A DNA stretch of 64,000 nucleotides from Sulfitobacter sp. SK011 (lineage in GTDB: Bacteria; Pseudomonadota; Alphaproteobacteria; Rhodobacterales; Rhodobacteraceae). Positions 3,625 to 55,197 of this stretch are shown here, one piece after another; the first letter of the stretch is position 1, and every line of letters begins with the position of its first letter. Below the pieces are notes generated by a model that saw only the letters and a program-made list of their open reading frames with translations, had not been told where the DNA came from and made no database searches. A program made the position numbers and the translations under genes. Where the stretch lies: NCBI RefSeq assembly GCF_003352065.1, contig NZ_CP025803.1, positions 1,550,001-1,614,000 on the forward strand, in the 5' to 3' direction.

Positions 3625-3663
3625 GAGAGCGTCTTAACCGTACATAGGACTGGACGAAACCCG

Positions 3664-4053: not shown

Positions 4054-4108
4054 GGTCACCTCCCGGTTGGGGGCGACCTTTGCAAATCAATATGGCATTT
4101 CTTGGATG

Positions 4109-4783
4109 TCAGGCGGCGTCTTTCTCGGCCAACACTTTTTGCAGCATCTGGGCATAGGTTTGCGCGCCTTGCGCCCCGGTCAGCAAATAGCGCCCGTCAA
4201 ACACCATCGAGGGCACACCGGATATCCCCCGGGACGTCCAGAATTGCTGCCGCGCGCGGGTGTCTTCCGCCTGACTGCCCGAGGCCAGCACATCGCCAGC
4301 CTGCGCCGGGTCCAAGCCAACGGAAGCGGCAACCTTGACCAGCACATCCGTCTGCGACACATCTTTGCCATCGGTGAAATGCGCATCAAACAACGCCATC
4401 TTGAGCGGGTGTTGCAGCCCGTGTTCTTGCGCCCAATCCAACAGTTGATGTGCGGCAAAGGTGTTCACGATCCGGCTGTCTGGGGTGAAATTAAACTCAA
4501 AGCCCAGTTCGGCACCCAGGTCGGTCAGCATTTTACGGTTCTGCGCGGATTGTTCGCGTGTCTGGCCATATTTCTCAGCAATATGCGCGCTCAGGTTCTG
4601 ACCCTCGGGGGGCATTGCAGGGTTCAATTCAAACGGATGCCAGCGGATATAGGCACCGGCACCGACCATGCCCAAGGCCTGTTCAAGCTGTTTGTAGCCC
4701 ACAATGCACCAAGGGCACATGACATCCGATACAATGTCAATTTGAACAACCGGAGGCTCGGTTGGGGCCGGGGTATCGGACAT
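4109..4783 (-). CDS. DsbA/FrnE-like thioredoxin-fold oxidoreductase
   Basis: This 224-residue DsbA-superfamily protein has CPWC at residues 23-26, close to the N-terminus, and the long helical insertion of the FrnE/2-hydroxychromene-isomerase-like branch. The SGVPSMVFDGRYLLTGAQ block near the C-terminus holds the cis-proline. There is no signal peptide, so it should act in the cytoplasm as a dithiol-disulfide oxidoreductase; FrnE homologues are linked to redox stress. The start at 4783 (MSDTPAP) is chosen for its upstream AGGAG; the frame stays open another 20 codons upstream without support. Confidence 0.88.
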   Translation of the reverse strand: MSDTPAPTEPPVVQIDIVSDVMCPWCIVGYKQLEQALGMVGAGAYIRWHPFELNPAMPPEGQNLSAHIAEKYGQTREQSAQNRKMLTDLGAELGFEFNFTPDSRIVNTFAAHQLLDWAQEHGLQHPLKMALFDAHFTDGKDVSQTDVLVKVAASVGLDPAQAGDVLASGSQAEDTRARQQFWTSRGISGVPSMVFDGRYLLTGAQGAQTYAQMLQKVLAEKDAA

Positions 4784-4942
4784 GATGCAGGCTCCTGTTG
4801 GGTGGCAATATCTAAAAATCGGCACGATCGGGCGGTTTTTCAATCCCCAAGGCCTGTATTTAGGGCCAACAACGTTTTGGCCTGAAGCTATCTTGTGCTA
4901 GCATTTGGTCAATTAAGTGATTCATTTTTTTGGAGAGGGACT

Positions 4943-6295
4943 ATGCATTTTAAAGTATTAACTGGGGCAATTTTGACTGCATCGCTTGCGATGACGCCCG
5001 CAGATCGGGCCGAAGCTGACGCAGGCGACTTTATCGCAGGCGCGATCATTGGCGGGGTCGTGGGGCACAGCATCAAGAACCAGCGCCGCACAACGACACG
5101 CAGCCGCACGGTAACCCGGAAAAAATCCACGCGGTCCAGCATCCCATCGACCCAGGAAGGTCGGAATATTCAGGCTTCCCTGAACTATTTTGGATTCAAC
5201 GCAGGCGCTGTCGATGGTCAGTTGGGCCGTCAGACCCGCAACGCGGTGTCGCAATATCAGGCCTATTTGGGCTATCCGGTCACTGGCCAATTGTCTGCTT
5301 TTGAAAATAACCTGCTGATCTCAAGCTACAACCGCGCACAGGCGGGGGGGTATGCAGTACAACAGCAGGTCGCGTCGACACCGGATGGCACGCGCGGATT
5401 GCTGAAAACCTATCGCTCTGAAATGGCGGGTCATTCTCCTGCGGCTGCTGCACCGACAACAACCATTGTTGTCGCACCGCAAGCTGTTCCGCAGACAACG
5501 ACACCGACGTTTGCGGCCACGGCTGCGGCGGCCGCACCTTTGGCAGGCGCTGCCACGTCAGCCGCTGCATCAACGACAGGGCTGCCAAACTTCCTCGGGG
5601 CGGGCACGCAAGCCTCACTTGCATCGCACTGCAACACGGTTTCTTTGATCACCAACACCAACGGCGGGTTCACCACTTTGGCGAGCATGTCAGACCCGAA
5701 TGTGGCGCTGAACGAACAATTCTGCCTTGCGCGCACCTATGCGATTGCCAGATCCGAAGAATTGGTGGGCCAGATTCAAGGGTTCACCCCCGATCAGATC
5801 GCCACGCAATGCGCGGGCTTTGGTCCGGCGATGAAAGACAAGGTGGCGTCGCTGTCGCTGAAACCACGTGACGCAGTGGTGGCCGATGTGTCGTCCTTTG
5901 TGCTGTCCACCGGCATGTCGCCAGCACAGTTGCAAGGCACGGCCAAGATTTGTCTCGGCGTCGGATACCGCACCGATAACATGGACGTGGCCGTGGGGTC
6001 CGCATTGCTGCTTTATGCAATTGGCGAAGGGGTTTACGGCGAATTGATGGGGCACCATCTGTCGCAAGGGTTTGGTCCGGCCAAGCGCGTTGATATGGCC
6101 GCCAGCTGGTACGAGGCGGGCCTTGCCGCCGCTGATTCCGGGGCCGCCGCTGTGTTTGTCCCCGGACAGCCAGAGCGGACCGAACTGATCCGTCAGGCTT
6201 CATTGCGCAGCAGCGGTCTTCCTGCCGCTGGAACTTTGCCACAGGCGCAACCCGCCTCAAGCACAGGTTTGCCGACCTTTTCGATCAGCGAATAG
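4943..6295 (+). CDS. Exported protein with peptidoglycan-binding domain
   Basis: The 450-residue protein begins with a signal-peptide-like segment (residues 1-24). A glycine-zipper-like stretch follows (GDFIAGAIIGGVVGHSI), then a basic patch. A PG_binding_1 domain lies at about residues 67-125 (QASLNYFGFNAGAVDGQLG, TRNAVSQYQAYLG), then a low-complexity Ala/Thr linker at ~155-205 and a ~220-residue C-terminal region I do not recognise. It probably anchors to murein in the periplasm. ATG 4943 has GGAGAGG seven bases upstream. The gene is followed by a strong terminator and tRNA-Leu. Confidence 0.8.
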   Translation: MHFKVLTGAILTASLAMTPADRAEADAGDFIAGAIIGGVVGHSIKNQRRTTTRSRTVTRKKSTRSSIPSTQEGRNIQASLNYFGFNAGAVDGQLGRQTRNAVSQYQAYLGYPVTGQLSAFENNLLISSYNRAQAGGYAVQQQVASTPDGTRGLLKTYRSEMAGHSPAAAAPTTTIVVAPQAVPQTTTPTFAATAAAAAPLAGAATSAAASTTGLPNFLGAGTQASLASHCNTVSLITNTNGGFTTLASMSDPNVALNEQFCLARTYAIARSEELVGQIQGFTPDQIATQCAGFGPAMKDKVASLSLKPRDAVVADVSSFVLSTGMSPAQLQGTAKICLGVGYRTDNMDVAVGSALLLYAIGEGVYGELMGHHLSQGFGPAKRVDMAASWYEAGLAAADSGAAAVFVPGQPERTELIRQASLRSSGLPAAGTLPQAQPASSTGLPTFSISE

Positions 6296-6322
6296 GGCCG
6301 CATTCCAAGCCTTTCGCAAACG

Positions 6323-6354
6323 CCCCCGGTGCGCCATCGCACCGGGGGTTTTTT
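6323..6354 (+). terminator. Rho-independent terminator
   Basis: A perfect 11-bp GC-rich stem (6323-6333 with 6338-6348, loop CCAT) is followed by six T. It lies 28 bp after the peptidoglycan-binding gene and ends its transcript before the tRNA. Confidence 0.9.
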
Positions 6355-6419
6355 GTTGCCGATTGCCCCTTCACAACGCCCGCGACTTTGGCTAAACGGC
6401 TTCTCACCATCCATGGCGT

Positions 6420-6505
6420 GCGGTCGTGGCGGAATGGTAGACGCGCAGCGTTGAGGTCGCTGTGGGGTAACACCCGTGAGAGTTCGAGTCTCTCCGACCG
6501 CACCA
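6420..6505 (+). tRNA. tRNA-Leu (anticodon GAG)
   Basis: The acceptor stem GCGGTCG pairs with CGACCGC and an encoded ACCA end follows. The anticodon stem is CAGCG/CGCTG with loop TTGAGGT (6451-6457), giving anticodon GAG at 6453-6455, which reads CUC and CUU. A long variable arm (TGTGGGGTAACACCCGT) marks a class II tRNA, and the T-loop TTCGAGT is normal. It is the integration site of the element remnant on its 3' side. Confidence 0.96.
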
Positions 6506-7273
6506 TTTTAAAATCGCTACCCTTCAAGTAGTCTAACGCCTTGAAGGGTAAGGTAGTATTTGGAGTTCGAACACCTTGAATTCGATCATATTCCATTGGG
6601 CTGGCAAAAACGAGCCTAAGGACCACTCGCTTCAGTGTGCAACTCGCTTTCTCCCATATTTTATAAGGGCTTGATAGAAACTGCACGGCGAGTTCGAACA
6701 TTTCGTCGAATGAACGCTCTGGGAAGGTTATTCTATCAATTTCCGCCTCGGTTTTTGCCTTTTCGGACTGTAAATCGGTTACCTTGGCTTCATACGCGAT
6801 CGCGATGGAGTCGCTTTGGGTTTGAGCAGCACGGTTAAGAACGTTCGAACTCTCTTTTTCAAGTTGAGCGACGCGCTGCTTCAGTCTGTTGGCTTCCTGT
6901 TTGGCCCACGTCCCCCTCCGATCCCAAGCATCGCGAAACACCCTCTCAGCAACTTCGTACGTAGCAGCCGATGGCTCAATTGACTGCAAAAGCGCTTCAA
7001 AGTGACCTTCAAGCCGGTCACGAGGAATGGACTTCCCTTTCTCTAAACATGATCGATACTGGCAGAGGTAATACGGATAACGAACTCCGGTACCACTTCG
7101 AGACCAACAAGAGGTCAGTTTTCTTCCGCAACTCGAACATTTTACAAAGCCCCGTAAAGGGAATTCCAAGTCGATGTCTTTCCTTGCGGGAGCGACAGCG
7201 GAGGAGCTGAGACGGTCTTGGTTGATCAAATAGGTTTCGTAGGAGATGAGCGGTTCAAGCACGGCCTTGGTCA

Positions 7274-8146
7274 TTGGATGTCAATGATAATCCTCTGCTA
7301 ACTTTAAGCAATGATCGCCTCCCTGAGGCGGCCAGAGAGGAAGCAGATACATTCTTGGACGTTATAGATCCGACCGTGAGGAATGTTGAAGTTGTTCGAT
7401 CCGCTCGGACTAGTGTTGGATATTTGGCATTTACCCACAATCTGTATGAAATCAACATACTGGAGCATGAAAGGGACATCGACCAAGACGTCCGGGCTTT
7501 TGGCCGAATCACGGATATTGATGGTTTCTTGCTCTTTGTCGCTGAAGTCTTCATCAGCAAAATAGATGACAACTCAAAGTATTTTGAAATTTGCAGACTG
7601 CAGAGCGGGGGAGCTAGGGCATTCTACGCTATGTTGTTGCGATGGAAGTTAGAACACCTGCCTTTAAGCCAAATGGTTGATCGCTTTGTTGCATACTGGA
7701 ATGAAGTAGGGGGTACAATTTTCGTGGGAAGGTGGGGTGATTACACTCAAGATAATGATTTTTTTCCCAGATATGTTGTCTGGAGTGATAAGAGTGATGC
7801 TGAGAAAGCAAATCTGGCCATCGTAAGGATTAAGGACGAGCAAGATTTTATTGAAAGTGCCCTATCCAAGTATGTTGATTTAGCAGGCGACTTGGATGTA
7901 ATTGATGAAACTCTGTACCTAAATTTGAAGTATGGCACATCGGACGACTTAGAAATTGAGCTGATAAGGGCTGGCTTCAACGGAGTTCTAGCCAAGCACC
8001 TCTTGCAGAATTACTCTACGTTTGTCGAATTTTTTTCCGGCGAGCATGCTGAGTTTCTATTTCATGAAGGAATATTGGATGAAATGCGCAGCAACAGTGA
8101 AAACGAAATTTCCATATTCGAGGTGAAGTTGATGGCTGGGCTGTAA
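7274..8146 (+). pseudogene. Element cargo protein, probably N-terminally truncated
   Basis: The 290-residue open frame is acidic and AT-rich, with codon use unlike its neighbours, which points to foreign DNA. It has no ATG or ribosome site at its head; the first usable codon is TTG 7274, and the frame opens at the recombinase break. Features include a helical region, FVGRWGDYTQDNDFFPRYVVW near the middle and LKYGTSDDLEIELIRAGF towards the end. In my judgement it resembles the C-terminal end of a larger helicase-type protein from defence or mobile loci, but I cannot name a family. It is either a truncated gene or a short protein with an unusual start. Confidence 0.5.
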
Positions 8147-8239
8147 GTCCCTCACCGTTGTTGGTTTTGCAAGTCACCCTTTTCTGGCGTTGGCCAAGAT
8201 CGAAGATCGGCTTCCCAGCGTTTAAGTTCCGTGAAAAGG

Positions 8240-8271
8240 TGGTTCGAAGTTTCTCCCTTTAGGTGCACCAC
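8240..8271 (+). repeat. Degenerate tRNA-3'-end-like repeat, copy 1
   Basis: The 32-base unit starts TGGTTCGAAGTTTCTCC and ends GTGCACCAC. It matches copy 2 (8312-8343) at 25 of 32 positions. Both contain a T-loop-like TTCGA and a terminal GCACCA, as in the tRNA-Leu 3' end at 6482-6505. It is a candidate decayed attachment site on the far side of the tRNA-Leu element. Confidence 0.5.
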
Positions 8272-8311
8272 TTTCTATTGGCCTACCGCCTTCGGTCGCT
8301 TGAGGCCTGGT

Positions 8312-8343
8312 TGGTTCGAGGTTTCTCCTCTCATCCGCACCAC
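8312..8343 (+). repeat. Degenerate tRNA-3'-end-like repeat, copy 2
   Basis: This is the second copy, 72 bp after the first. It starts TGGTTCGAGGTTTCTCC and ends CATCCGCACCAC. The CATCCGCACCA end matches the acceptor 3' half of a typical leucine tRNA, but no matching 5' half is present, so it is not a functional tRNA. Confidence 0.5.
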
Positions 8344-8480
8344 AGGATGTCAGCGCCAAAGTGTCCTGCGTTTTCACAATCGTTTGAGCAATTCCCCGAC
8401 ACTTATCCGTTCAGATGGTGTCATATGACATAGATCGCCGCATTTTGTATTCACAATGCTCCGCGACAGCAAGACACTCA

Positions 8481-8510
8481 TTGCAGCAGATCGGCGCTTC
8501 AAGGTATGAT
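8481..8510 (+). promoter_or_regulatory. Candidate sigma70 promoter for tamA-tamB
   Basis: A TTGCAG (-35, 8481-8486) and TATGAT (-10, 8505-8510) are separated by 18 bp, about 80 bp upstream of the tamA start. This is a sequence match only. Confidence 0.35.
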
Positions 8511-8588
8511 CCCCGCAAAAGGCCGTCTGCTCGACAGATAAGGTCATGCCGCTATATCCGGTGTATGGTGTGAGTTGGGGGGCCTTGA

Positions 8589-10412
8589 GTGGTGCAATTG
8601 GCAGTAGGATGGCACAAGGTGCTTTGGACGGCCCGCGCGCTTGTTGTCGGTGTCGTGCTACTTGCGGCTGGCATGGCTGCTGCCGCCGATCTCAAGATCA
8701 GAGGCATTCCCGAAGACACAGACCTTTATAAGACCCTTGCGGGCGGATCATTGTTGGTTGAACAAACCGCCGAGGACGCAACACCAACCCCGCAAGAGGT
8801 CGTAGCCGCCGCACAGGCTGATTATGGGCGTCTGCTGGCGGTGCTGTATGATCAGGGATATTTCGGGCCGGTCATCAAGATTACGCTCGATGGTGTCGAC
8901 GCGGCGGCAATTCCACCGGTCAATCCGCCACGTCAGATCAGGCAGGCGGTGATCGCCATTGAGCCGGGACCCCTGTTTCGGTTCGGTGCTACCAGAATTG
9001 CACCGCTGGCACCGGGCACGGAATTGCCCGAAGGGTTTGCCACCGGCCAGACCGCTGGCCTAGGCGTGCTCAAGGCAACCGTCGCCAGCGGGATCAGCGG
9101 CTGGCGCGATCAGGGCCACGCCATGGCAGCCCTTGCTGATCAGAAGCTCACCGCGCGCCATCAGGACCGGGTGATCAGCGCCGATTTACGCCTGGCACCG
9201 GGACCAAGGCTGCGTTTTGGTCCTTTGACCGTTACGGGCAACCGCGACGTCCGCACCGAGCGGATCATTGAAATTGCAGGCTTGCCCACGGGTACTGTGT
9301 TTTCGCCCGATGAGCTTCGGCGCGCGCAGGCGCGATTGCGGCGCGCGGGGGCCTTTAATGCCGCCGCCCTGATTGAAGCGGACAAGATCGGTCCGAATGA
9401 CACCTTGCCCATCACCGCACAGATCGTCGAAAGCCCCCCCCGTCGGCTTGGTTTTGGTGCTGAGGTATCCACCACCGAGGGGCTGACGCTGAGCTCGTTC
9501 TGGCTGCACCGAAATTTGCTGGGCGGGGCTGAACGATTGCGCATTGAGGCCGAGATCAAGGGAATCGGGGGCAGCACCGGCGGCACCGACTATTCGCTTG
9601 GTGCGCGCTTTGAGCGGCCTGCGACGTTCAACGCGGATACTGATTTTTATGCACTGGCCAAGCTGGCGCAACTCGACGAGGTCAACTTCTTTTCCCGCCA
9701 GTTGGATCTGGAAGCGGGTATCGAGCGGATTGCCAATGAAAGCCGGACCTATACCTTGGGTGTCGGTCTGCGCCGTGCCGAGACGCGGGATGCCTTTGGC
9801 ACCAATAAGTACACGTTGCTGACGCTGCCGCTGAGTGTCGAATTTGATTATCGTGACAAGACGTTGGATGCCACTTCAGGGTATTACGCCAAGGTGGCGC
9901 TGACACCGTTTCTGGCACTTTCGGGTGCCGACAACGGGGTGCGCACATTTATTGACGTGCGTGGCTACAAGACATTTGGCACAGAACGCCCCGTGACCTT
10001 TGCCTTGCGCGGGCAATTGGGGTCCGTCTATGGCCCTCAGCTTTCTCAGGCACCGGCGGATTATCTGTTCTATTCCGGTGGCGGTGGCACTGTGCGCGGG
10101 CAACCCTATCAATCCCTTGGCGTCAACTTGGGTGGCGGTAACGTGGTGGGCGGGCGCAGTTTTCTGGGTCTCTCTGCCGAAGCACGGCTGAAGATGACAG
10201 ATAAGATTGGCATCGTCGGCTTTGTCGACGCAGGCTATATTGGGGCTGAACAATTCTATGACGGTTCGGGTCAGGTTCACTCCGGTGCCGGGCTTGGTTT
10301 GCGTTATGCAACCGGGATCGGACCCATTCGTCTGGATGTCGGGGTGCCGACATCCGGGCCCGCAACCGGCGAGAATTTCCAAGTCTACATTGGCATAGGG
10401 CAGTCATTCTAA
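8589..10412 (+). CDS. tamA: Autotransporter assembly factor TamA (Omp85 family)
   Basis: TamA is an outer-membrane beta-barrel of the BamA/Omp85 superfamily that works with TamB in membrane-protein insertion and lipid traffic. The 607-residue product has a signal peptide (~residues 1-34). POTRA domains follow (DLKIRGIPED, LRFGPLTVTGNRDVRTERIIEIAGLPTGTVF), and the C-terminal ~330 residues form the surface-antigen barrel, with VRGQPYQSLG near residue 505 and a terminal phenylalanine (IGIGQSF). The GTG at 8589 and one at 8592 are both possible starts, and neither has a strong ribosome site. The stop overlaps the tamB start by one base. Confidence 0.92.
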   Translation: MVQLAVGWHKVLWTARALVVGVVLLAAGMAAAADLKIRGIPEDTDLYKTLAGGSLLVEQTAEDATPTPQEVVAAAQADYGRLLAVLYDQGYFGPVIKITLDGVDAAAIPPVNPPRQIRQAVIAIEPGPLFRFGATRIAPLAPGTELPEGFATGQTAGLGVLKATVASGISGWRDQGHAMAALADQKLTARHQDRVISADLRLAPGPRLRFGPLTVTGNRDVRTERIIEIAGLPTGTVFSPDELRRAQARLRRAGAFNAAALIEADKIGPNDTLPITAQIVESPPRRLGFGAEVSTTEGLTLSSFWLHRNLLGGAERLRIEAEIKGIGGSTGGTDYSLGARFERPATFNADTDFYALAKLAQLDEVNFFSRQLDLEAGIERIANESRTYTLGVGLRRAETRDAFGTNKYTLLTLPLSVEFDYRDKTLDATSGYYAKVALTPFLALSGADNGVRTFIDVRGYKTFGTERPVTFALRGQLGSVYGPQLSQAPADYLFYSGGGGTVRGQPYQSLGVNLGGGNVVGGRSFLGLSAEARLKMTDKIGIVGFVDAGYIGAEQFYDGSGQVHSGAGLGLRYATGIGPIRLDVGVPTSGPATGENFQVYIGIGQSF

Positions 10413-27037: not shown

Positions 27038-27772
27038 TCAGGGGATCAGGGTGTCAGCCTTGGCGCGGGCACCGGAGAATGTGACAATCGCACGCACGAG
27101 AACATCCAGCGTATCCAAAACCGGAACCGGCGATTGAATGTCCTTGCTGATCAGCGAAAATTCAGAGCACCCGATGATCACTTTTTGTGCACCACGCTGG
27201 GCGAGGGCCTTGGCCTCACGTTCCAAAAGAGCGATGTCCGCGTCGCTTGGTCCCGCTTTCTTGATCCTGCGAATGGATGCAAGAATGTCCGCCTCATTTT
27301 CGGGGTAGGCGGGTGTTATGCCGAACTCAGACAGAAAACGCTCAAAAAGACCGGTGCTGTTGGTCGCGGGGGAAGCGAGAATGCCGACGATGGCCCCCCG
27401 CGTCATCCCCTGCGCCACTTCTGAACAGGCGAGTTTTGGCATGTTCAAAAGCGCGATGCCGACACTTGTTTCAATTTGCGACGCGTAAAGGTGCGCGGTG
27501 TTGCACGGCATCGCCAGAACCTCAGCACCGGCCTGTTCCAATCTGATTGCCATCTCGGCAAGGACCGGACCCGGATCGGGCCCGGTCTTTTCAATCAGGT
27601 GGGCAATGCGGGATGGAACCTGTGGGTTCATATCCACAAACATTGGAATGTGATCCTGATCATCCTCGGCGGCGGTGGTCGCATGCACTCTTTTCATCAA
27701 CTCAAGAGTGGCCTCGATGCCCATGCCGCCCAGAATGCCAATTTTGCGAAACCTGCCAGAAGCCTCCCTCAT
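27038..27772 (-). CDS. Aspartate/glutamate-family racemase
   Basis: The 244-residue protein has the pseudosymmetric two-cysteine racemase layout: GILGGMG near the start, MPCNTAH with C90 and IGCSEFSL with C202 as the acid/base pair. These PLP-independent enzymes invert the alpha carbon of aspartate, glutamate or a related amino acid. It lies 12 bp downstream of the cuyA-like gene on the same strand, so the ligand may be cysteate, the sulfonate analogue of aspartate. That link is inference from context. Confidence 0.88.
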   Translation of the reverse strand: MREASGRFRKIGILGGMGIEATLELMKRVHATTAAEDDQDHIPMFVDMNPQVPSRIAHLIEKTGPDPGPVLAEMAIRLEQAGAEVLAMPCNTAHLYASQIETSVGIALLNMPKLACSEVAQGMTRGAIVGILASPATNSTGLFERFLSEFGITPAYPENEADILASIRRIKKAGPSDADIALLEREAKALAQRGAQKVIIGCSEFSLISKDIQSPVPVLDTLDVLVRAIVTFSGARAKADTLIP

Positions 27773-27784
27773 GCCCGCGACCAG

Positions 27785-28798
27785 TCAGGACCAGCGGTCT
27801 GAGAAGTCGAACGCGGCGTCATACCCAAAGAGCGCGACCGAACCGCCTGTGTGCAGGAACACGACCCGCTCGCCTTTCTTGAAGTGACCCTTGCGGATCA
27901 GGTCGATGAAACCAGCAGCGCCTTTTGCCGAATAGACCGGATCAAGCAGGATCGCCTCAAGTTCAGCAAACATCTTGATCGCCTCAAGGCCGCTCTTGGT
28001 GGGAATGCCGTAGCCTTCACCAACGTAATCTGTGTTGGCTACAACGTCTTCGCGCGCCACGACACCGGGGCAGCCCAGTTTTTCCGCCGTCTTGCAGGCC
28101 AGATTGTATACGTTTTCTTCTTGCTTGGCCTTGGGCGCGCGCACGCCGATGCCCAAAAGCGGGATCTGTGCGTTCATCGCTTTCAGACCAACGATCAGCC
28201 CTGCCTGTGTTCCGGCGCTGCCTGTGGCGGTGACGATGTGGTCAATCTTCATGCCGCTGTTGTTCACCTGGTTCAGCATCTCAAAGGCGCAGTTGACATA
28301 GCCCAGAGCGCCCGTGGGGTTTGAACCGCCGCCGGGGATGGCATAGACCTTTTTGCCGTCTGCCCGCATCTCGGCGGCCATTTCTTCGATCAGGACGTTG
28401 AAGTCCGGTCCGGTCGGGCGCTTTTCGGTTGTGGCACCATGCAGATGATCCAAAAGGACGTTGCCGTTGTTGTTGTAGTTGGCATTGTTTGATGCGGTGC
28501 GATCTTCCAGCACAATGTGGCACTGCATGCCCATCTTGGCTGCGAAAGCCGCGGTTTGGCGCGCGTGATTGGATTGGGTGGCACCTTGGGTGATGATCAT
28601 CTCAGCGCCCTGCAACTCGGCCTCGGCCATCAGGAATTCCAGTTTGCGCGTCTTGTTGCCACCGGTGGACATGCCGGTGCAATCATCGCGCTTGATCCAG
28701 ATTTCTGGTCCGCCAAGCTCTTTTGTCAAACGGTCAAGACGCTCCAGCGGTGTGGGCAGGTGGGCAAGAAAACGGCGGGGAAAGCGTGCAAGATGCAT
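27785..28798 (-). CDS. cuyA: L-cysteate sulfo-lyase / D-cysteine desulfhydrase family, PLP enzyme
   Basis: CuyA converts L-cysteate to pyruvate, ammonium and sulfite; the close relative D-cysteine desulfhydrase releases sulfide from D-cysteine. The 337-residue sequence is the fold-type II PLP family, with [10 protein letters not shown] (PLP lysine K49), [14 protein letters not shown] and [14 protein letters not shown]. Its N-terminus, [20 protein letters not shown], agrees with what I recall of the Silicibacter pomeroyi CuyA. AAGGA precedes ATG 28798. It is co-transcribed with a racemase and divergent from a LysR regulator, as in known cuy loci. The choice between cysteate and D-cysteine rests on that resemblance and context. 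Confidence 0.82.
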
Positions 28799-28853
28799 TT
28801 TTGAGATCCTTAATTTGCTCTATTCGCCTTTTAGCGTTCCAAAACGATGAAAG

Positions 28854-28900
28854 CTAATGCAAAGTAGCGCATATAAATTGCAAAAATCGCAAGTTTGCAA
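28854..28900. promoter_or_regulatory. Divergent operator region cuyA/LysR
   Basis: It contains CTAATGCAAAGTAGCGC (28854-28870), which recurs with one change upstream of the ABC importer (29926-29942, opposite strand). A LysR-type pair of TTGCAA half-sites 17 bp apart (28878-28883 and 28895-28900) also lies here. The T-N11-A geometry fits binding by the adjacent LysR regulator. Confidence 0.6.
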
Positions 28901-28917
28901 CGGTGCGGGAGAGACAG

Positions 28918-29844
28918 ATGCGTTTGGAATGGATCGAAGACATCTTGGCGGTGCTCGACAGCGGATCCCTGGCGCGGGCGGCAGAAAAACGTCTGTTGAC
29001 GCAATCGGCCTTCACCCGTCGCGTGCGGTTGATTGAGGAAAGCATCGGCGCGGAACTTTTTGACCGCCGCCGCAAACCAGTTACCCTGATGCCAGGGGTC
29101 GAGGCACTTGCCCCGGAGCTGCGTGATCTGAGCATGCGCCTGCGCAAAGTCAGGTACAGGTTAAAGACCGCGACCAGCCAGACCGGCGGCGCGCTGAATT
29201 TTGCCTGCCAGCATGCAATCACCACGACGGTTTCCCCTTTGATCGTGCGTGCCCTGACAGCGGATCGTCACGCCTCGGTAAGGGTGCGCTCAAGCAATCA
29301 GGAAGAATGCCTGATGCATTTGCTGTCCGGCGAAGTCGATTTTGTGGTGATGTACACAGTGCCAGACGCGCAGACGCCATCACTTGAGCGGGCCTTTGAG
29401 ACCCTGACACTGGGGAGTGATATCCTGATCCCGGTTTGTGCCCCCTCATTGAAAGACAGCGTTAGGGGCAGCCAGATTCCGGGCATCAGCTATCCTTCGA
29501 ACGTCTTTCTGGGTCAGGTGTTTGACCGAAATATCGCCCCGCACCTGAACGATGACCTCCAGATCGTGACCAAGGCCGAAACAGCGCTGACGCTTGCCGC
29601 CTATGAATTTGCGCTGGGCGGGATCGGGGTGGCATGGTTGCCGCGCTCTATGGTCGTCGAGGCTCTGGCGCAGGGATCGTTGGTCTCGCTTGAGGCGGAT
29701 CTGCCTGCGCAACCTCTCGACATCAAGGCGTTCCGGTTGTCAGAGGGTGGAGGGCCACAGTCGGAAACCGCGTGGCAAGACATCTTGTCCCAGATTGTCC
29801 TGCCCGATCATCTCAAGCGCATTTCGCATGGCTCTGGGAGTTAG
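28918..29844 (+). CDS. LysR family regulator (CuyR-like by position)
   Basis: The 308-residue LysR protein has its winged helix at residues ~3-62 (LEWIEDILAVLDSGSLARAAEKRLLTQSAFTRRVRLIE, in outline) and an effector domain with GGALNFACQHAITTTVSPLIV and ALGGIGVAWLPRSMV. GGGAGAG precedes ATG 28918; an upstream GTG at 28903 is less likely. It is divergent from the cuyA-like gene and upstream of the amino-acid importer. It is the natural candidate to bind the 17-bp motif found in front of both. Confidence 0.88.
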   Translation: MRLEWIEDILAVLDSGSLARAAEKRLLTQSAFTRRVRLIEESIGAELFDRRRKPVTLMPGVEALAPELRDLSMRLRKVRYRLKTATSQTGGALNFACQHAITTTVSPLIVRALTADRHASVRVRSSNQEECLMHLLSGEVDFVVMYTVPDAQTPSLERAFETLTLGSDILIPVCAPSLKDSVRGSQIPGISYPSNVFLGQVFDRNIAPHLNDDLQIVTKAETALTLAAYEFALGGIGVAWLPRSMVVEALAQGSLVSLEADLPAQPLDIKAFRLSEGGGPQSETAWQDILSQIVLPDHLKRISHGSGS

Positions 29845-29925
29845 GCACAGTATTCCGAAAAGGCTCAACACTCAGCGCGGCATCTTCAAGCGCATCGCTA
29901 AACATGCGTTTTGCGCAATTTAAAG

Positions 29926-29942
29926 GCGCTAATTTGCATTAG
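29926..29942 (-). promoter_or_regulatory. Second copy of the shared 17-bp motif
   Basis: Read on the minus strand it is CTAATGCAAATTAGCGC, identical at 16 of 17 positions to 28854-28870. Its core is a perfect dyad, CTAAT-N4-ATTAG. It lies about 150 bp before the importer's binding-protein gene. Confidence 0.6.
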
Positions 29943-30090
29943 ACGCGCCTAAGACGATTGGCTAACATCTGTTTTATGCAAATCTCGGATTTAGCATTGG
30001 CGCAGCAACGTCATGCGGCCATGATACGCGCACAATAGGAAATCGAAACCTCGGACGTATCGATAAACAAAATCAACAGGGAGTATCTGA

Positions 30091-30957
30091 ATGTCATTCA
30101 AAAAAGTATTCGCGACGGCGACCGTTGCGCTGGGCCTTTCGACCCCGGCAGTCTTCGCCGAAGGTCACGGAGGCACATTGGACAAGATTGCCGCCAGTGG
30201 TGAAATCGTAATCGGTCACCGCGAAAGCTCGGTGCCGTTTTCGTATCTTGACGCAAATCAGCAGGCGGTCGGCTATTCTATTGACCTGTGCATGAAAATT
30301 GTTGAGGCCGTCTCCGCCGAGCTCAATAAGGAACTGACGGTCAAATATGTGCCGGTCAACCCAAAGACGCGTATTGCGCTGATGGCGAACGGGACCATCG
30401 ACCTTGAGTGCGGTTCGACAACCAACAACCTGACACGTCAGCAGCAGGTTGAATATTTGCCGACAACATTTGTGACAGGCACCAAGATCATGGCCCGCAA
30501 GGATTCAGGGATCAATTCGGTTGCCGATCTGGAAGGCAAGGCGATTGCGCTTGCGCAGGGTACAACAAATGAGCGTGCCATCATGGCCGCTGTGGAAGCT
30601 GCGGGAATGGACGTTAAAATCCTGCCGGTGCGCGATCATGCCGAAGGCATGCTGTCACTGGAAACTGACCGCGTGGATGCCTATGCCACCGATCACATCC
30701 TGCTCTTTGGTCTGATTTCAAAATCCAAAACCCCAGATGATTTTGCAGTTGTCGGCGATTTCCTGTCATTTGACCCCTATGCTTTGATGGTGCGTCGCGA
30801 TGACAGCGCCTTTGAACTGGTCGGGAAGAAAGCGCTCGCGGAAGTGTTCCGGTCAGGTGAGATCGACGCGATCTATGCAAAATGGTTCGACCCACTTGGC
30901 GTTCCTGCTGATCCGCTTTTGAAAGCCGCATTCAAGCTTGGTGCATTGCCAGAATAA
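30091..30957 (+). CDS. Amino-acid ABC transporter, periplasmic binding protein (Asp/Glu type)
   Basis: The 288-residue family-3 solute-binding protein has a signal peptide at 1-23 (cut after FA). GltI/AatJ-like features follow: GHRESSVPFSYLDANQQAVGYSIDLC, MANGTIDLECGSTTNN, the WFDPLG-type C-terminal segment and GTTNERAI. It binds an acidic amino acid, and the genomic link to cuyA makes cysteate a candidate ligand. CAGGGAG precedes ATG 30091. A strong hairpin follows the gene before the permeases. Confidence 0.9.
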   Translation: MSFKKVFATATVALGLSTPAVFAEGHGGTLDKIAASGEIVIGHRESSVPFSYLDANQQAVGYSIDLCMKIVEAVSAELNKELTVKYVPVNPKTRIALMANGTIDLECGSTTNNLTRQQQVEYLPTTFVTGTKIMARKDSGINSVADLEGKAIALAQGTTNERAIMAAVEAAGMDVKILPVRDHAEGMLSLETDRVDAYATDHILLFGLISKSKTPDDFAVVGDFLSFDPYALMVRRDDSAFELVGKKALAEVFRSGEIDAIYAKWFDPLGVPADPLLKAAFKLGALPE

Positions 30958-31015: not shown

Positions 31016-31735
31016 ATGAATTATAACTGGAATTGGGCCGTCCTGTTTGAGGAACAATACCTCAGCTGGTTGATCAGTGGCTTTGGCTGGACGGTCTCGG
31101 TCGCGCTAAGTGCATGGTGCATCGCCATCGTGATCGGCGCGCTTGTCGGTGTCGGAAAGACGGTACCAAACCGGGTGATCCGCGCCATATGCGCCACATA
31201 TGTAGAGATATTCCGAAACGTGCCGCTGCTGGTACAGATGTTCATCTGGTATTTCGCAGTGCCCGAATTGCTGCCCGACGACTGGGGCAGATGGATGAAG
31301 CGCGACATGCCAAACCCCGAATTTGTCACCGCTGTCGTGGCGCTTGGGCTTTATACCGCCTCGCGTATCGCCGAACAGGTGCGTGCGGGCATCGAAACCG
31401 TGCCACCGGGCCTTACGGCCGCTGCGACTGCGCATGGTCTCAGCGTTGGCCAAACCTACCGCTATGTTCTGCTGCCGATTTCATTTCGGATGATCGTGCC
31501 ACCCCTGACCTCGGAATTCCTGACCGTGTTCAAGAACTCCTCGCTGGCCCTGACCATCGGTCTGCTTGAGCTGACCGCGCAAAGCCAGCAGATCGCCGAA
31601 TACACCTTCCAGGGGTTCGAGGCCTTTACCGCCGCGACCGTCATTTACGTCTGTATCGCGCTGATCGCCACGGTCCTGATGCAGGTGCTGGAAAAATACA
31701 CCCGCATCCCCGGCTATGTCGGAAAAGAGGGCTGA
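31016..31735 (+). CDS. Amino-acid ABC transporter permease (GltJ type)
   Basis: The 239-residue inner-membrane permease of the HisM/GltJ family has five to six hydrophobic segments. The conserved cytoplasmic EAA-like loop is AEQVRAGIETVPPGLTAAATAHGLSVGQTYRYVLLP (region ~118-155), and the EIFRNVPLLVQMFIWYF block lies before it. It pairs with the next permease. ATG 31016. Confidence 0.92.
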   Translation: MNYNWNWAVLFEEQYLSWLISGFGWTVSVALSAWCIAIVIGALVGVGKTVPNRVIRAICATYVEIFRNVPLLVQMFIWYFAVPELLPDDWGRWMKRDMPNPEFVTAVVALGLYTASRIAEQVRAGIETVPPGLTAAATAHGLSVGQTYRYVLLPISFRMIVPPLTSEFLTVFKNSSLALTIGLLELTAQSQQIAEYTFQGFEAFTAATVIYVCIALIATVLMQVLEKYTRIPGYVGKEG

Positions 31736-31738
31736 TCC

Positions 31739-32395
31739 ATGGGAGATTTTGATTTCAGCGTCATCTGGGCCAACTTGCCGTTCCTCTGGCAGGGCCTGCA
31801 ACTTAGCCTGTGGCTGACCTTCCTGTCGATCATCGGCGGCATCGTTCTGGGCACACTTCTGGCACTGGCGCGACTGTCCGGGATCGCGCCGCTGTCGCTG
31901 GTTGCCGCGACATACGTCAACCTGATCCGGTCGGTGCCGCTGATCCTTGTGATCTTCTGGTTCTTCTTTCTGGTGCCGCTGGCCATCGGGCGGCCCATCG
32001 GCAGCTTCTACTCGGCGCTGATCGCCTTTGTCCTCTTCGAGGCCGCGTATTATTCCGAAATCATGCGCGCGGGCATCCAAAGCGTCAAAAGCGGACAGGT
32101 GCATGCCGGGCAGTCTACTGGGCTGAACTACTGGCAAATCCAGCGCTACGTCGTTTTGCCGCAGGCCTTTCGCAACATGATCCCGATCCTCGTGACGCAG
32201 GGCATCATTCTGTTTCAGGATACATCGCTGGTCTTTGTGGTCTCCTTGCGCGACTTCATGACCGCCTCTTCGATAGTCGCGCGCACCGAAGGAAGGCTGG
32301 TTGAAATGTATCTTTTTGCCGCCGTCGTCTATTTCGTAATCTGCTTCTCCGGCTCAATGCTGGTGAGAAGCCTCAAATCCCGGATGAGCACATGA
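31739..32395 (+). CDS. Amino-acid ABC transporter permease (GltK type)
   Basis: This 218-residue second permease of the importer starts three bases after the first. The N-terminal transmembrane block is followed by [17 protein letters not shown] and the EAA loop ([28 protein letters not shown]), which contacts the ATPase. Its last four bases overlap the ATP-binding gene (ATGA). Confidence 0.92.
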
Positions 32396-33120
32396 TCAGC
32401 ATCGAAAACATCAGCAAATGGTATGGCGATTTTCGCGTGCTGACCGAATGCACCACCGGCGTCAAAAAAGGCGAAGTTGTCGTGGTCTGTGGCCCCTCCG
32501 GGTCGGGCAAATCGACACTGATCAAGTGCGTCAACGGGTTGGAGCCTGTGCAAAAAGGCAAGATCACCGTGGACGGCGATGAGGTGACCGCCAAGCGCGC
32601 AAATCTGACAGCGCTTCGATCCCGCATTGGCATGGTCTTTCAGCATTTCGAACTTTACCCGCATATGTCGGTGCTGGAAAACCTGTGCCTCGCACAGGAA
32701 AAGGTTCTCAAACGCGGCCGGGACGAAGCCGTTGCGCGCGCAGAGAAGTTACTGACACGGGTCGGCATGGCCGATCATGCCAAGAAATTCCCCAGCCAAT
32801 TGTCCGGCGGTCAGCAGCAACGCATCGCGATTGCGCGCTCTTTGGCAATGGACCCGATTGCAATGCTCTTTGACGAGCCGACCTCGGCGCTTGATCCCGA
32901 AATGATCAAAGAGGTGCTCGATGTCATGGTTGAACTGGCACAGGAAGGGATGACGATGATGGTTGTCACCCACGAAATGGGCTTTGCCCGCAAAGTCGCC
33001 GACAGGGTCATCTTTATGGACGAGGGGGCGATCATCGAGGACAGGCCGACGGCTGAGTTCTTTGACAACCCTGAAAGCGACCGCGCCAAGGATTTCCTCT
33101 CAAAGATACTCAATCACTGA
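32392..33120 (+). CDS. Amino-acid ABC transporter ATP-binding protein (GltL type)
   Basis: This 242-residue ATPase has Walker [13 protein letters not shown], the Q-loop in [18 protein letters not shown], the signature [15 protein letters not shown], Walker [14 protein letters not shown] and the switch histidine in THEMGFA. It energises the two permeases. The ATGA overlap with the preceding gene shows operon organisation. It closes the importer operon. Confidence 0.95.
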
Positions 33121-52516: not shown

Positions 52517-53401
52517 TCACAAGGCATCCCACACCTGCCGCCCGATTTTGTCGAGCCGATCATGCGAGCAGAAAAGCGACAACGTGAGCGTCGCCTGCCA
52601 GGCCTCGCCCCCGACCGGGGTCACCAGCCCTGCGGCCAATTCCTCGGCCACCACGCTTTCTGGCAGCCACGCAACGCCACTGCCCGATAACATCCTGCGT
52701 TTGATCGCTTCGGTCAGCGCATCCATGTACCGCAGTGCAAGGGGGGGCGTGCGCGCGCCGATCGTCTGCTCGACCACGGCACCAAGGAAACTGCTGGGAT
52801 CATAGCCCAGGTAGGGAATTGCATCGCGCCCGGAATCGTCAAGGTCCCAACCATTCGAACGCGCCGCATTCATTTGCGCGACAGGGATCATTTGTTCGGT
52901 GCCGATGTCCTTGCGGGCGAATTGCTTTTCTTCGAATACGGGCTGTACGTCCTTGTGTCGATAATACAGCAAAAAATCGCAGGTCCCCTCGGACAGCAGC
53001 TGGCAACAGGTCCGAAGGTTGTCTGAATAGACCCGCACCCGCAGGTTCGGGATGAGATCTTCGAATTCCTTAATCCGCCCGGTCAGATAATTGACAGAAA
53101 TGGTGTGCAGCACGGCAAACCGCTGAAAGGCTGTGACACCACGTTCCTGGGCACGCAGGGTTTGCCGTATGTCGGACAGATTCGAAAGCGATTCCAGTGC
53201 AACAGGCAAAAATTGCTGGCCCGCCTCTGACAGTTGAACAGGATAGCTCGACCGCTGGATCAGCGGCACCCCCAGCCAGTTTTCCAACGACTTGATGCGC
53301 CGGCTGAAAGCAGACTGCGTGATGTTCCGCTCTTCGGCGGCACGGGTGAAATTCAGCGTGCGCGCCAAACACGCGAAGTCGCCCAACCAGTTTATGTCCA
53401 T
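52517..53401 (-). CDS. LysR family regulator next to TRAP operon
   Basis: The 294-residue LysR protein starts MDINWLGDFACLARTLNFTRAAEERNITQSAFSRRIKSLE (winged helix, residues ~2-60, in outline), and its effector domain has FLLYYRHKD and LSGSGVAWLPESVV. GGGAGGC precedes ATG 53401; the open frame upstream adds 20 unsupported residues. It is divergent from the second TRAP transporter, its likely target. Confidence 0.89.
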   Translation of the reverse strand: MDINWLGDFACLARTLNFTRAAEERNITQSAFSRRIKSLENWLGVPLIQRSSYPVQLSEAGQQFLPVALESLSNLSDIRQTLRAQERGVTAFQRFAVLHTISVNYLTGRIKEFEDLIPNLRVRVYSDNLRTCCQLLSEGTCDFLLYYRHKDVQPVFEEKQFARKDIGTEQMIPVAQMNAARSNGWDLDDSGRDAIPYLGYDPSSFLGAVVEQTIGARTPPLALRYMDALTEAIKRRMLSGSGVAWLPESVVAEELAAGLVTPVGGEAWQATLTLSLFCSHDRLDKIGRQVWDAL

Positions 53402-53619
53402 TTCTGCGCCTCCCAGAACAGCAGTAGTCCATGATTTATAACAACTATGCAATATCCGCATGATTTGATGTGGTATTTGAGTTGGCTTTTTTCCGGGTCC
53501 GCCGCGTAGCGTTGAAGTTAGGCATTCTGGGTTCGGCTGTGCGCGGCCGGTCAGACAGCTGAAGGTCGGGCCGGGGAGGAAACCGTAAGGCGCGCCTGAA
53601 ATCTTTTTGGGAGGAAACC

Positions 53620-54615
53620 ATGACTATATCTTTGAAATCAACGACGGCCATTGCTGCTGTATTGGCTGTCGGCATGACGGCAGGCACAGCAACCGCCGAA
53701 ACAACCCTGCGTCTCAGCACCTACGTCAACGAGTCCGACATCCGTTACGAAGGCTTTACACATTTTGCCGACCTTGTTGCCGAAAAAACCGGCGGCTCTG
53801 TGAAGGTCGAAATCTTTCCGTCTGCTACGCTGCATGGCTGGTCTGAAGGTGTAGATTCCGTTCAAGGGGGCGTTTCCGACATCAGCTGGATCAATGCGGA
53901 CAACCGGCTGCCCTGCTATGCTGTCACCTCGCTTTATCCGGCTGAAGTCAGCCTCGAAAACCAAACCGGTCTCGATGCGGCCTATGCTGAACTGATCCGT
54001 GACGAAGCCGCGAACGCAGGCCTTACACCGCTCTTCAACTCCAACTACTCTTACGATCAGGAATGGTGGTTCGAAGAAGGCATTGATGACATTGGCAACC
54101 TTGACGGCAAGCTTGTCCGCTCAATCGGGCCGTTGGTCAGCATGATGATCGAAACATGGGGCGGTGAGCCGGTGTTTGTGGCACCCAAAGAGGTGTTTCA
54201 GTCAGCCGAACGTGGTGTTGTTGACGGCATCAACATGGGTGTTGCGACCTACAGCTCCTGGAAGCTGTGGACAGTGATGCCTTATATGGTCAATGCGAAC
54301 CTGTTTTATGGCAACATTCAGTACATGATCAACAAGGACAAGTTCGATGCGCTGACCGCAGAAGAGCAAACAGCGCTGACAACCGCTGCGTCCGAAACCG
54401 AAAGCTGGTTGCAGCCACGTTACGAGGCATGGGTTGATCAGCAGGTTGGCAACGCGGTCATGCAGGGCGGTGGTGCCGCTGTGTCGATCCCGGATGACAA
54501 GCGCGCAGAGCTGATTGCGAGTGTTAAGCCGAAATGGGACGAGACCGTGAACGAAGCTTGCGGTGCCGAAATGGCGGACAGCATCCGGTCTCTTCTGGCA
54601 AGTCACGCGCCCTAA
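53620..54615 (+). CDS. dctP: TRAP transporter solute-binding protein (DctP type), second system
   Basis: The 331-residue extracytoplasmic receptor has a signal peptide at residues 1-26 (cut after ATA). The DctP core follows: LRLSTYVNESDIRYEGFTHFADLVAEKTGGSVKVEIFPSATL in outline, DGKLVRSIGPLVSMMIETWGGEPVFVAPKEVFQSAERGVVDGI in outline. GGGAGGAAACC precedes ATG 53620. It is only distantly related to the first DctP of this window, so it has a different ligand. Confidence 0.92.
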   Translation: MTISLKSTTAIAAVLAVGMTAGTATAETTLRLSTYVNESDIRYEGFTHFADLVAEKTGGSVKVEIFPSATLHGWSEGVDSVQGGVSDISWINADNRLPCYAVTSLYPAEVSLENQTGLDAAYAELIRDEAANAGLTPLFNSNYSYDQEWWFEEGIDDIGNLDGKLVRSIGPLVSMMIETWGGEPVFVAPKEVFQSAERGVVDGINMGVATYSSWKLWTVMPYMVNANLFYGNIQYMINKDKFDALTAEEQTALTTAASETESWLQPRYEAWVDQQVGNAVMQGGGAAVSIPDDKRAELIASVKPKWDETVNEACGAEMADSIRSLLASHAP

Positions 54616-54629
54616 ACACATCTCCCGGT

Positions 54630-54657
54630 GGTGGTCCCTCTGGTTTGAGGGGCCGCC
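54630..54657 (+). promoter_or_regulatory. Intercistronic hairpin dctP-dctQ, second TRAP system
   Basis: An 11-bp stem with two G-U pairs (54630-54640 with 54647-54657, loop TGGTTT) begins 14 bp after the stop and is followed by AACTTTTCATTTTT. It may be a partial terminator. Confidence 0.68.
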
Positions 54658-54687
54658 AACTTTTCATTTTTCAAAGTGAGGTATGTC

Positions 54688-55197
54688 ATGGGTGATGGGT
54701 TTGATCGTCTGATTGGTTCCGTTGAGCGTGCTGTTGTTTGGCTTGCTGGTCTTGGTGCCGTCATCGTGCTGGTGCAGATGTTATGGATTTCTTACGGCGT
54801 CTTTGTCCGCTACGGGCTTGGTAAACCTGATCGCATGGTGACCGAAGCAACCGCGTTGCTGCTTTTTCCTGTCGCATTTACCGGGCTTGCCTTTGCGATG
54901 CGCGAAGATGCCTTTCCCAAAGTCACCATGTTGACCGACCGATTGCGACCCGGCCTGAGGCGTGCCTTTGACATCATAAACCACATCCTGATGCTCGGCG
55001 TCGGCAGCTTTTTTGCCTACGCTGGTGTAAGTGCCACTATCCGCGCGTTCAACTCGGGCGTCGCCTCAGAGATTTTGCATTGGCCGCGCTATTGGTTTTG
55101 GGCACCGGGTGCCTTTTCGCTGGTCATATTTTCCCTTTACACCGCGTTGCGTCTGATCCGTCTGATCCGCACGCCGGCCCCCTCAGGAGATCTCTAA
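54688..55197 (+). CDS. dctQ: TRAP transporter small permease (DctQ type), second system
   Basis: The 169-residue membrane protein has four hydrophobic segments and the DctQ pattern (IVLVQMLWISYGVFVRYGLGKP, FAMREDAFPKVTMLTDRL). ATG 54688 has GTGAGG upstream; a GTG four codons earlier is in frame. Its TAA overlaps the dctM ATG by one base. Confidence 0.9.
   Translation: MGDGFDRLIGSVERAVVWLAGLGAVIVLVQMLWISYGVFVRYGLGKPDRMVTEATALLLFPVAFTGLAFAMREDAFPKVTMLTDRLRPGLRRAFDIINHILMLGVGSFFAYAGVSATIRAFNSGVASEILHWPRYWFWAPGAFSLVIFSLYTALRLIRLIRTPAPSGDL

What the first reader, a model, noticed from the sequence alone, without database searches (positions are those of the whole stretch)
28854..29942. A 17-bp motif shared by the cuyA/LysR promoter and the amino-acid importer promoter
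Seen: CTAATGCAAAGTAGCGC at 28854-28870 (+) and CTAATGCAAATTAGCGC at 29926-29942 (-) are identical at 16 of 17 positions. The second has a perfect CTAAT-N4-ATTAG core dyad. Both lie in regulatory gaps on either side of the LysR gene. This is strong internal evidence that the LysR protein controls both the CuyA/racemase unit and the ABC importer as one regulon.
Basis: seen in the sequence. Interest (0 to 1): 0.75.

Follow-up and report, generated by a model that had tools for sequence, protein, structure and literature searches.

The report
Duplicated CuyR operator controlling cysteate genes
A bacterium carries the same two-part regulator landing site in front of its cysteate-breakdown genes and in front of the neighbouring importer, which suggests that one switch protein turns on uptake and breakdown of this sulfur-containing nutrient together.

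Summary
The two 17-mers are unique in the 4.19-Mb genome and are the left part of a ~44-bp composite site (36/44 identical) at 28854-28897 (+), between cuyA and lysR, and at 29899-29942 (-), before the importer. The site has the layout of a LysR-type operator: a T-N11-A dyad (TGC-N7-GCA) plus a half-site 21 bp away. Relative to each target gene, order, spacing and position of a -10-like hexamer are the same. A model trained only on cuyA-lysR promoters of other genomes reports just these two sites in the genome. Both are conserved in Yoonia sediminilitoris and in Jannaschia helgolandensis, where five genes separate the importer from lysR. The LysR is an ortholog of R. pomeroyi CuyR. The importer is orthologous (82-83%) to an R. 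pomeroyi transporter in a cuyA operon, inferred to be SPO2658-2661, listed in print under cysteate. Its CTAAT-N4-ATTAG dyad is not the conserved core (2 of 36 sites). Binding, inducer and direction of control are untested. An ordinary kind of regulon, with a newly defined operator and an unusual rewiring of the importer.

The parts
27038..27772 (-). cuyB, cysteate racemase, second gene of the cuyA unit
   Evidence: NCBIfam NF052483 racemase_CuyB 270.2 bits, cut-off 190
27785..28798 (-). cuyA, D-cysteate sulfo-lyase (target 1)
   Evidence: NCBIfam NF052482 547.8 bits, cut-off 450
28828..28833 (-). -10-like hexamer TAAAAG of the cuyA promoter, beginning 29 nt downstream of the first base of TTGCAT (inferred)
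   Evidence: same offset in both window promoters and in Yoonia/Jannaschia
28854..28897 (+). composite operator 1 (cuyA/lysR)
   Evidence: 36/44 identical to operator 2; best genome hit of model R1, E 7.1e-5
28879..28891 (+). T-N11-A dyad TGCAAAAATCGCA (RBS-like site), centre about -64 of cuyA
28918..29844 (+). lysR = cuyR ortholog (ATG 28918; a GTG at 28903 is possible)
   Evidence: Pfam HTH_1 + LysR_substrate; 54.4% to R. pomeroyi CuyR; tree
29899..29942 (-). composite operator 2 (importer)
   Evidence: second of two genome hits of R1, E 2.0e-3; conserved in Yoonia and Jannaschia
29905..29917 (-). T-N11-A dyad TGCGCAAAACGCA of operator 2, centre about -64 of the importer
29963..29968 (+). 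-10-like hexamer TAACAT of the importer promoter, same offset from TTGCAT as at cuyA (inferred)
30091..30957 (+). substrate-binding protein of the importer (target 2)
   Evidence: SBP_bac_3; best NCBIfam model glutamate/aspartate binding protein, 235.3 bits, below its cut-off 375; nearest solved chains 2ia4/2vha; 83% ortholog in G454 = R. pomeroyi
31016..31735 (+). importer permease 1
   Evidence: BPD_transp_1
31739..32395 (+). importer permease 2
   Evidence: BPD_transp_1
32392..33120 (+). importer ATPase
   Evidence: ABC_tran

Best explanation
The shared motif is part of a duplicated composite operator for the LysR-type regulator encoded between the two copies, an ortholog of R. pomeroyi CuyR. 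Inferred mechanism: a CuyR tetramer sits on the TGC-N7-GCA dyad (centre about -64) and on the half-site two helical turns away that abuts the -35 region (about -40). An inducer, probably cysteate or a product of it, changes its grip so that RNA polymerase is recruited. Operator 1 serves cuyA-cuyB and, by lying in the lysR leader, autoregulation. Operator 2 serves the four-gene importer. Uptake and desulfonation of cysteate are thus switched together as a two-operator regulon. Shown here: operator structure, uniqueness, conservation, orientation and spacing, orthology. Inferred: binding, activation, inducer, substrate.
For: Model R1, built from 19 other genomes' cuyA-lysR gaps, reports 2 sites at E<=10 in the own genome: these two. 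In Yoonia and Jannaschia the best two sites are again the importer and cuyA/lysR gaps. Both window copies face their target the same way, with the dyad centre 52 bp upstream of a -10-like hexamer. PWM, leave-one-out for the 25 training loci: 23 of 27 cuyA promoters beside a CuyR-type LysR score >=27.7; 19 of 22 beside another LysR score <=3.7. CuyR loci not used in training score 33-43: R. pomeroyi 33.3; G413 34.5, G421 40.5, G443 33.6, G429 42.5. The LysR is in a clade with R. pomeroyi CuyR (97/82). Importer substrate: the R. pomeroyi ortholog (82-83%) lies in a cuyA-importer operon, inferred to be SPO2657-2661; SPO2658-2661 is listed under cysteate in PMC9038784 and SPO2657 as cuyA2 in PMC9870897 (passages). 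In 20 of the 80 loci a cuyA hit of at least 975 bases lies directly upstream of the importer on the same strand.
Against: No binding, footprint or expression data. 4 of the 27 CuyR-type promoters score only 10.5-17.7. The 6 training loci left out of R1 as shifted or weak were found at E<=0.1 in only 2 cases, one as a partial match and one by the dyad alone. Sites of this type are not exclusive to CuyR: three Bradyrhizobium importer promoters whose LysR is in a distant clade score 13.6-23.7 and three Granulosicoccus cuyA promoters 20.9-23.5. In R. pomeroyi only one R1 site is reported at E<=0.05, at cuyA/cuyR, so there neither the importer ortholog nor cuyTUVW is seen in the regulon. The transporter verified by mutants for cysteate is cuyTUVW SPO3040-3043 (PMC10130141), apparently a different one. 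The genome scan scored 150 of 918 first-look candidates, so weak sites may be missed.
Confidence: 0.86

Rival explanations
1. The operators bind a different or additional LysR-family protein, for instance the paralog LysR2 (52517-53461), whose own promoter carries a weakly similar site; CuyR would then not be the sole regulator.
For: Third-best PWM site in the window, 15.4, at 53441-53486 (-), lies in the LysR2/TRAP promoter; LysR2 cassettes are often next to cuy loci; similar sites occur beside LysR genes outside the CuyR clade (Bradyrhizobium).
Against: R1 does not report the LysR2 site at E<=10 in the own genome, though in Jannaschia it is third at E 0.09. The strong composite site accompanies CuyR-type LysR genes also where no LysR2 hit lies in the stretch fetched (L076, L037, L042) and is absent at 19 of 22 cuyA promoters with another LysR.
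Confidence: 0.07
2. Operator 2 acts mainly on lysR or on an antisense transcript of it and not on the importer; the importer has its own control.
For: The site lies only 54 bases beyond the lysR stop codon, and 148 bases separate it from the importer start codon.
Against: In Jannaschia five genes separate lysR from the importer, and the site stays with the importer. Orientation and -10 spacing match the importer, as at cuyA. In Rhizobium sp. Root482 a similar site (33.3) lies directly before the importer, though there lysR is the divergent neighbour.
Confidence: 0.04
3. The similarity is a passive duplicate of the lysR 5' region or chance resemblance without function.
For: Both copies are rich in A and T and close together.
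Against: 0 of 1000 shuffles. Both sites are kept in three genomes, and the two copies within a genome (36, 28 and 34 of 46 identical) are no more alike than copies across genomes (27-37 of 46), which speaks for an old, maintained duplication. Both copies fit a model made from other genomes.
Confidence: 0.02
4. The regulon is real, but the importer carries another acidic amino acid (aspartate, glutamate) or a related sulfonate and CuyR senses that compound.
For: The best NCBIfam model of the binding protein is a glutamate/aspartate one (below cut-off); cuyTUVW, not this importer's ortholog, is the system named in the R. pomeroyi mutant screen for cysteate (PMC10130141).
Against: Repeated linkage to cuyA and listing of SPO2658-2661 under cysteate (PMC9038784).
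Confidence: 0.2

Closest known systems
CuyR of Ruegeria pomeroyi DSS-3 (SPOA0159) with cuyA-cuyZ
   Same: LysR family, divergent from cuyA, 54.4% identical, same composite site (33.3) in the same gap
   Different: There cuyA is followed by a putative sulfate exporter family gene (cuyZ), no racemase and no such importer is adjacent, and only one genomic site is reported
Importer downstream of cuyA2 in R. pomeroyi (inferred SPO2657-2661) and the same layout in Roseovarius and others
   Same: Importer proteins 78-86% identical; linked to a cuyA that passes the CuyA cut-off in the three relatives tested
   Different: There the importer follows cuyA on the same strand beside a different LysR (27-34%); 19 of the 22 such cuyA promoters scored lack the CuyR composite operator, the 3 exceptions being Granulosicoccus
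LysR-type regulator promoters in general (RBS near -65, ABS near -35, T-N11-A box; recalled; papers on these terms seen only as a listing)
   Same: T-N11-A box, two-part site, spacing of two helical turns, divergent target gene
   Different: Ordinary; only the detail of a second complete operator before a separate transporter operon
cuyTUVW (SPO3040-3043), verified cysteate transporter of R. pomeroyi (PMC10130141, passages)
   Same: Assigned to cysteate uptake
   Different: Apparently not the close ortholog: that lies at 2.813 Mb of G454 beside a second cuyA; the SPO3040 sequence itself could not be fetched by name

Membership tests
LysR-type transcriptional regulator (CuyR) | N-terminal LysR HTH and C-terminal LysR substrate domain | tested here: met
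   PF00126 and PF03466 above cut-offs
LysR-type transcriptional regulator (CuyR) | Orthology to R. pomeroyi CuyR: identity, tree, divergent cuyA neighbour | tested here: met
   54.4%, clade 97/82 of 12 rows, same neighbour
LysR-type operator | T-N11-A dyad | tested here: met
   T-N11-A in 35 of 36 sites, TGC-N7-GCA in 32 of 36; 25 of the 36 are the matrix's own training sites
LysR-type operator | Second (activation) half-site near -35, fixed spacing from the dyad | tested here: met
   TGC 21 bp from the dyad's TGC position in 26 of 36 sites; -10-like hexamer at the same offset in both window promoters
LysR-type operator | Binding by the regulator and inducer-dependent activation | not testable with these tools
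   needs gel shift, footprint, reporter
CuyA / CuyB | NCBIfam equivalog cut-offs | tested here: met
   547.8 against 450 and 270.2 against 190 bits
Cysteate importer (SPO2658-2661 type) | Orthology and cuyA linkage | tested here: met
   82-83% in G454, taken as R. pomeroyi by coordinates; locus tags inferred; cuyA next to the importer in 20 of 80 loci
Cysteate importer (SPO2658-2661 type) | Transport of cysteate | not testable with these tools
   needs binding or uptake assay
HypT (best NCBIfam name of the LysR) | NCBIfam equivalog cut-off 301 bits | tested here: not met
   85.1 bits

The most novel reading that the evidence does not exclude
A regulatory rewiring caught in comparison: a cysteate importer that elsewhere is the tail of a cuyA2 operon beside a different LysR has, in one lineage (this genome, Yoonia sediminilitoris, Jannaschia helgolandensis), become a separate unit captured into the CuyR regulon by a complete second copy of the two-part CuyR operator, kept even where the genes were pulled apart.
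Probability: 0.6. Interest if true: 0.5.

Novelty: new member of a known kind. Interest (0 to 1): 0.42.

Why it matters
Cysteate is among the organosulfur compounds thought to pass from marine algae to bacteria such as R. pomeroyi (PMC8027193, passages). The regulator gene cuyR has a name, but in the held library only one paper uses it for this gene, in an annotation list, and I found no description of its binding site or regulon there. The report gives a testable operator, a predicted genome-wide regulon of two sites and a candidate importer, and an example of how a transporter can change regulons, which helps to annotate cysteate uptake in related bacteria.

Tried and rejected
Chance and passive duplication: rejected by shuffles, genome-wide uniqueness and conservation. 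CTAAT-N4-ATTAG as recognition core: rejected, 2 of 36 sites. Many genome copies: rejected. HypT identity of the LysR: below cut-off. Importer = cuyTUVW: not supported; the close ortholog lies elsewhere, beside a second cuyA. I fetched 3.20-3.26 Mb of G454 to look for SPO3040-3043; a four-gene amino-acid-type transporter at 3.252-3.255 Mb is only 30% alike in part of its binding protein, and I could not prove that it is SPO3040-3043. Secondary R1 sites in G038 (C4:135889) and G239 (C1:99023) lie by genes that I did not identify with a family search. One search served only to pick a genome near R. pomeroyi. Rows dropped: R1 used 19 of 25 sites; L047, L048, L049, L051, L056, L057 were left out as shifted or weak. 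One search left out loci whose cuyA hit did not start near residue 1, and one further row there (L109, no adjacent divergent LysR) scored 6.5. One search left out importer loci with under 100 bases upstream, and some genomes stand in its 86 rows twice. The tally leaves out 62 genomes that the tool did not score.

Full report
1. OBSERVATION. In the whole genome (one contig, 4,190,786 bases) they are the only two places with 0 mismatches; the remaining 7 of 9 matches have 3 mismatches, and the reversed pattern as control gives 15 matches. Aligning the two gaps shows that the likeness runs on: 28854-28897 (+) against 29899-29942 (-), 36 of 44 identical. In 1000 pairs of dinucleotide-shuffled gaps the best values were 15/17 and 30/44, so 0 of 1000 reached the observed 16/17 or 36/44.

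2. GENES. cuyB cysteate racemase and cuyA D-cysteate sulfo-lyase on the minus strand pass the NCBIfam equivalog cut-offs. The LysR carries the two LysR Pfam domains. The importer is a four-gene ABC system; the best NCBIfam model for its binding protein is glutamate/aspartate binding (235.3 bits, below the cut-off of 375), and the nearest solved chains are 2ia4/2vha.

3. OPERATOR ANATOMY. LysR relatives (E<=1e-50) were found in 26 of 295 genomes of the family, one being the own. All 25 others have lysR divergent from cuyA. Their gaps carry a shared element: half-site CWAATGCGAAAT, then, 21 bp on, a dyad TGC-N7-GCA, which is a T-N11-A box. A position matrix trained on these 25 gaps, without any window sequence, ranks the two sites first and second in the 64-kb window (35.0 and 30.4); the third scores 15.4. 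Some of the 25 gaps fit poorly (L047, L049 most).

4. GENOME-WIDE TEST. Model R1 (sequence only, 19 of the 25 sites; six shifted or weak ones dropped) reports two sites at E<=10 in the own genome: operator 1 (E 7.1e-5) and operator 2 (E 2.0e-3). The tool scored 150 of 918 first-look candidates, so weak sites could be missed. In the 25 family genomes, 21 have a site at E<=0.1, and the best site of each of the 21 lies in the lysR-cuyA gap; but 19 of these genomes trained the model, and of the six left out only 2 were found, one over model positions 2-37 and one by the dyad alone.

5. CONSERVATION AT THE IMPORTER. A scan of one genome per species with an alignment of the binding protein gave 80 loci (the best 80 of 516 are kept). 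Yoonia sediminilitoris (L076) has the same order cuyB-cuyA-lysR-importer, with lysR 75% and binding protein 91% identical. Jannaschia helgolandensis (L077) has the orthologs with five other genes between lysR and importer. In both, composite operators stand before cuyA/lysR and before the importer, and R1 ranks those two first in each genome. Of 86 importer upstream regions scored (the window's own not counted; some genomes twice), 9 score 13 or more: Yoonia 37.0, Rhizobium sp. Root482 33.3, Jannaschia 26.9, three Bradyrhizobium (23.7, 19.2, 13.6) and L110, L074, L102 (13.8-14.5). The Bradyrhizobium LysR genes are far from CuyR in the tree, so sites of this general type are not exclusive to CuyR. 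Within the Yoonia-containing genus, 6 of 56 genomes have CuyR. R1 was run on five of these: G405, which is Yoonia by its identical site positions and sequences, shows both sites (E 9.4e-6, 7.5e-4); G413, G421, G443 and G429 show one strong site each, the rest being E>=0.1. No importer hit lies within the 17-20 kb fetched around cuyR of those four or of the sixth, G294, and G294 has one site at E<=0.1.

6. GEOMETRY. Read toward the target gene, both window operators have the same order: dyad, half-site, -35 region, then a -10-like hexamer (TAAAAG for cuyA, TAACAT for the importer) beginning 29 nt after the first base of TTGCAT. In Yoonia the hexamers at that offset are TAAACC and TAACGT, in Jannaschia TAAACA and TTAGAC. 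In the 25 family gaps the hexamer at that offset begins with TA in 10 (L036-L041, L047, L048, L049, L052), among them the five loci whose LysR is closest to the window's; in the other 15 it does not. This puts the dyad centre near -64 and the half-site near -40 in the window, the usual LysR activator layout (layout recalled).

7. THE SITE MOSTLY FOLLOWS THE REGULATOR. Scored leave-one-out for the 25 training loci, 23 of 27 cuyA promoters beside CuyR-type LysR genes reach 27.7 or more; the four weak ones are 10.5, 13.6, 16.8, 17.7. Of 22 cuyA promoters beside another LysR (27-34% identical), 19 score 3.7 or less. The three exceptions (20.9-23.5) are Granulosicoccus, whose LysR falls beside the CuyR clade in the tree (94/90, not fully supported). 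The window LysR groups with Yoonia and Jannaschia (100/100) inside a clade with R. pomeroyi CuyR (97/82, 12 rows). R. pomeroyi CuyR is 54.4% identical and divergent from cuyA; its gap scores 33.3. That this gene is the named CuyR rests on PMC4334477 (passages seen), which lists SPOA0157-0159 as cuyZ, cuyA, cuyR, the order seen.

8. WHAT THE IMPORTER CARRIES. In one search, 20 of the 80 loci have a cuyA hit of at least 975 bases directly upstream of, and on the strand of, the importer (19 with a divergent LysR hit beyond); three more show a partial cuyA. The same holds in three of the seven relatives, with a fourth, G158, showing the end of a cuyA at its contig edge; these overlap in part with the 80. 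The cuyA of the three passes the CuyA cut-off. In G454, taken to be R. pomeroyi because its R1 site (C2:175039-175081) fits NC_006569 and its other contig is 4,109,437 bases, the ortholog (82-83%) is at 2.813 Mb behind a second cuyA (59%). PMC9870897 names SPO2657 cuyA2 and lists SPO2658, SPO2660 and SPO2661 as possible sulfonate transporter; PMC9038784 lists SPO2658-2661 under cysteate, citing Landa et al. 2019, which is not held (passages seen). Equating these tags with the 2.813-Mb operon is my inference from gene order and position. Against a simple reading, the transporter verified by mutants for cysteate is cuyTUVW, SPO3040-3043 (PMC10130141, passages seen), and R. pomeroyi has only one R1 site at E<=0.05.

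9. MECHANISM. Most likely CuyR, bound at the dyad and half-site, activates both units when cysteate is present and limits its own expression through the dyad that lies in the lysR leader. Shown: anatomy, uniqueness, conservation. Inferred: binding, activation, inducer. PMC11382572 (passages seen) states that CuyB interconverts L- and D-cysteate and that CuyA prefers D-cysteate, which fits the cuyA-cuyB unit.

10. VERDICT. The kind of thing is known (LysR regulon). The operator and two-unit regulon were not found in print in the held library. The most interesting part is that the same importer has two wirings: tail of a cuyA operon beside another LysR, or a separate unit with its own copy of the CuyR operator.

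Noticed in passing
window 52517-57250: A second LysR (LysR2) divergent from a TRAP transporter and an alpha/beta hydrolase (names from sequence look, no family search). Orthologous cassettes lie beside the cuy locus in L077, L215, L219, L039, L049; LysR2-like genes (54-60%) lie near it in L036, L038, L040, L216, L218, in the last two with the hydrolase. It may be a second sulfonate uptake module. Its promoter (53441-53486, -) carries the third-best operator-like site in the window.
   Followed up: partly
window 29976-29997: Imperfect palindrome ATGCAAATCTCGGATTTAGCAT just downstream of the predicted importer start; by eye not obvious in the Yoonia or Jannaschia leader. Could be a leader hairpin or an extra site.
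   Followed up: no
L109 (Rhizobium sp. Root482) 3101-8975: cuyA-cuyB and the importer on either side of a LysR, with an operator-like site (33.3) before the importer and only 6.5 before cuyA: the reverse arrangement of control.
   Followed up: partly
L103, L106, L107 (uncultured Granulosicoccus): CuyR-like operator (20.9-23.5) in front of a cuyA-importer operon with a LysR from the clade beside CuyR.
   Followed up: partly
L074, L102, L110: Importer relatives (56-57%) with a divergent LysR and a weaker site of the same orientation (13.8-14.5) but no cuyA hit above 54% beside them.
   Followed up: no
L147, L151, L152 (Bradyrhizobium): Distant importer relatives (45-46%) with upstream sites scoring 13.6-23.7 although their LysR lies far from CuyR in the tree: the TGC-N7-GCA box may be common to a wider LysR group.
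   Followed up: no
L231 9169-9214: The inferred R. pomeroyi cuyA2 promoter holds a lone TGC-N7-GCA box without the second half-site (score 4.2), perhaps the box of its own LysR.
   Followed up: no
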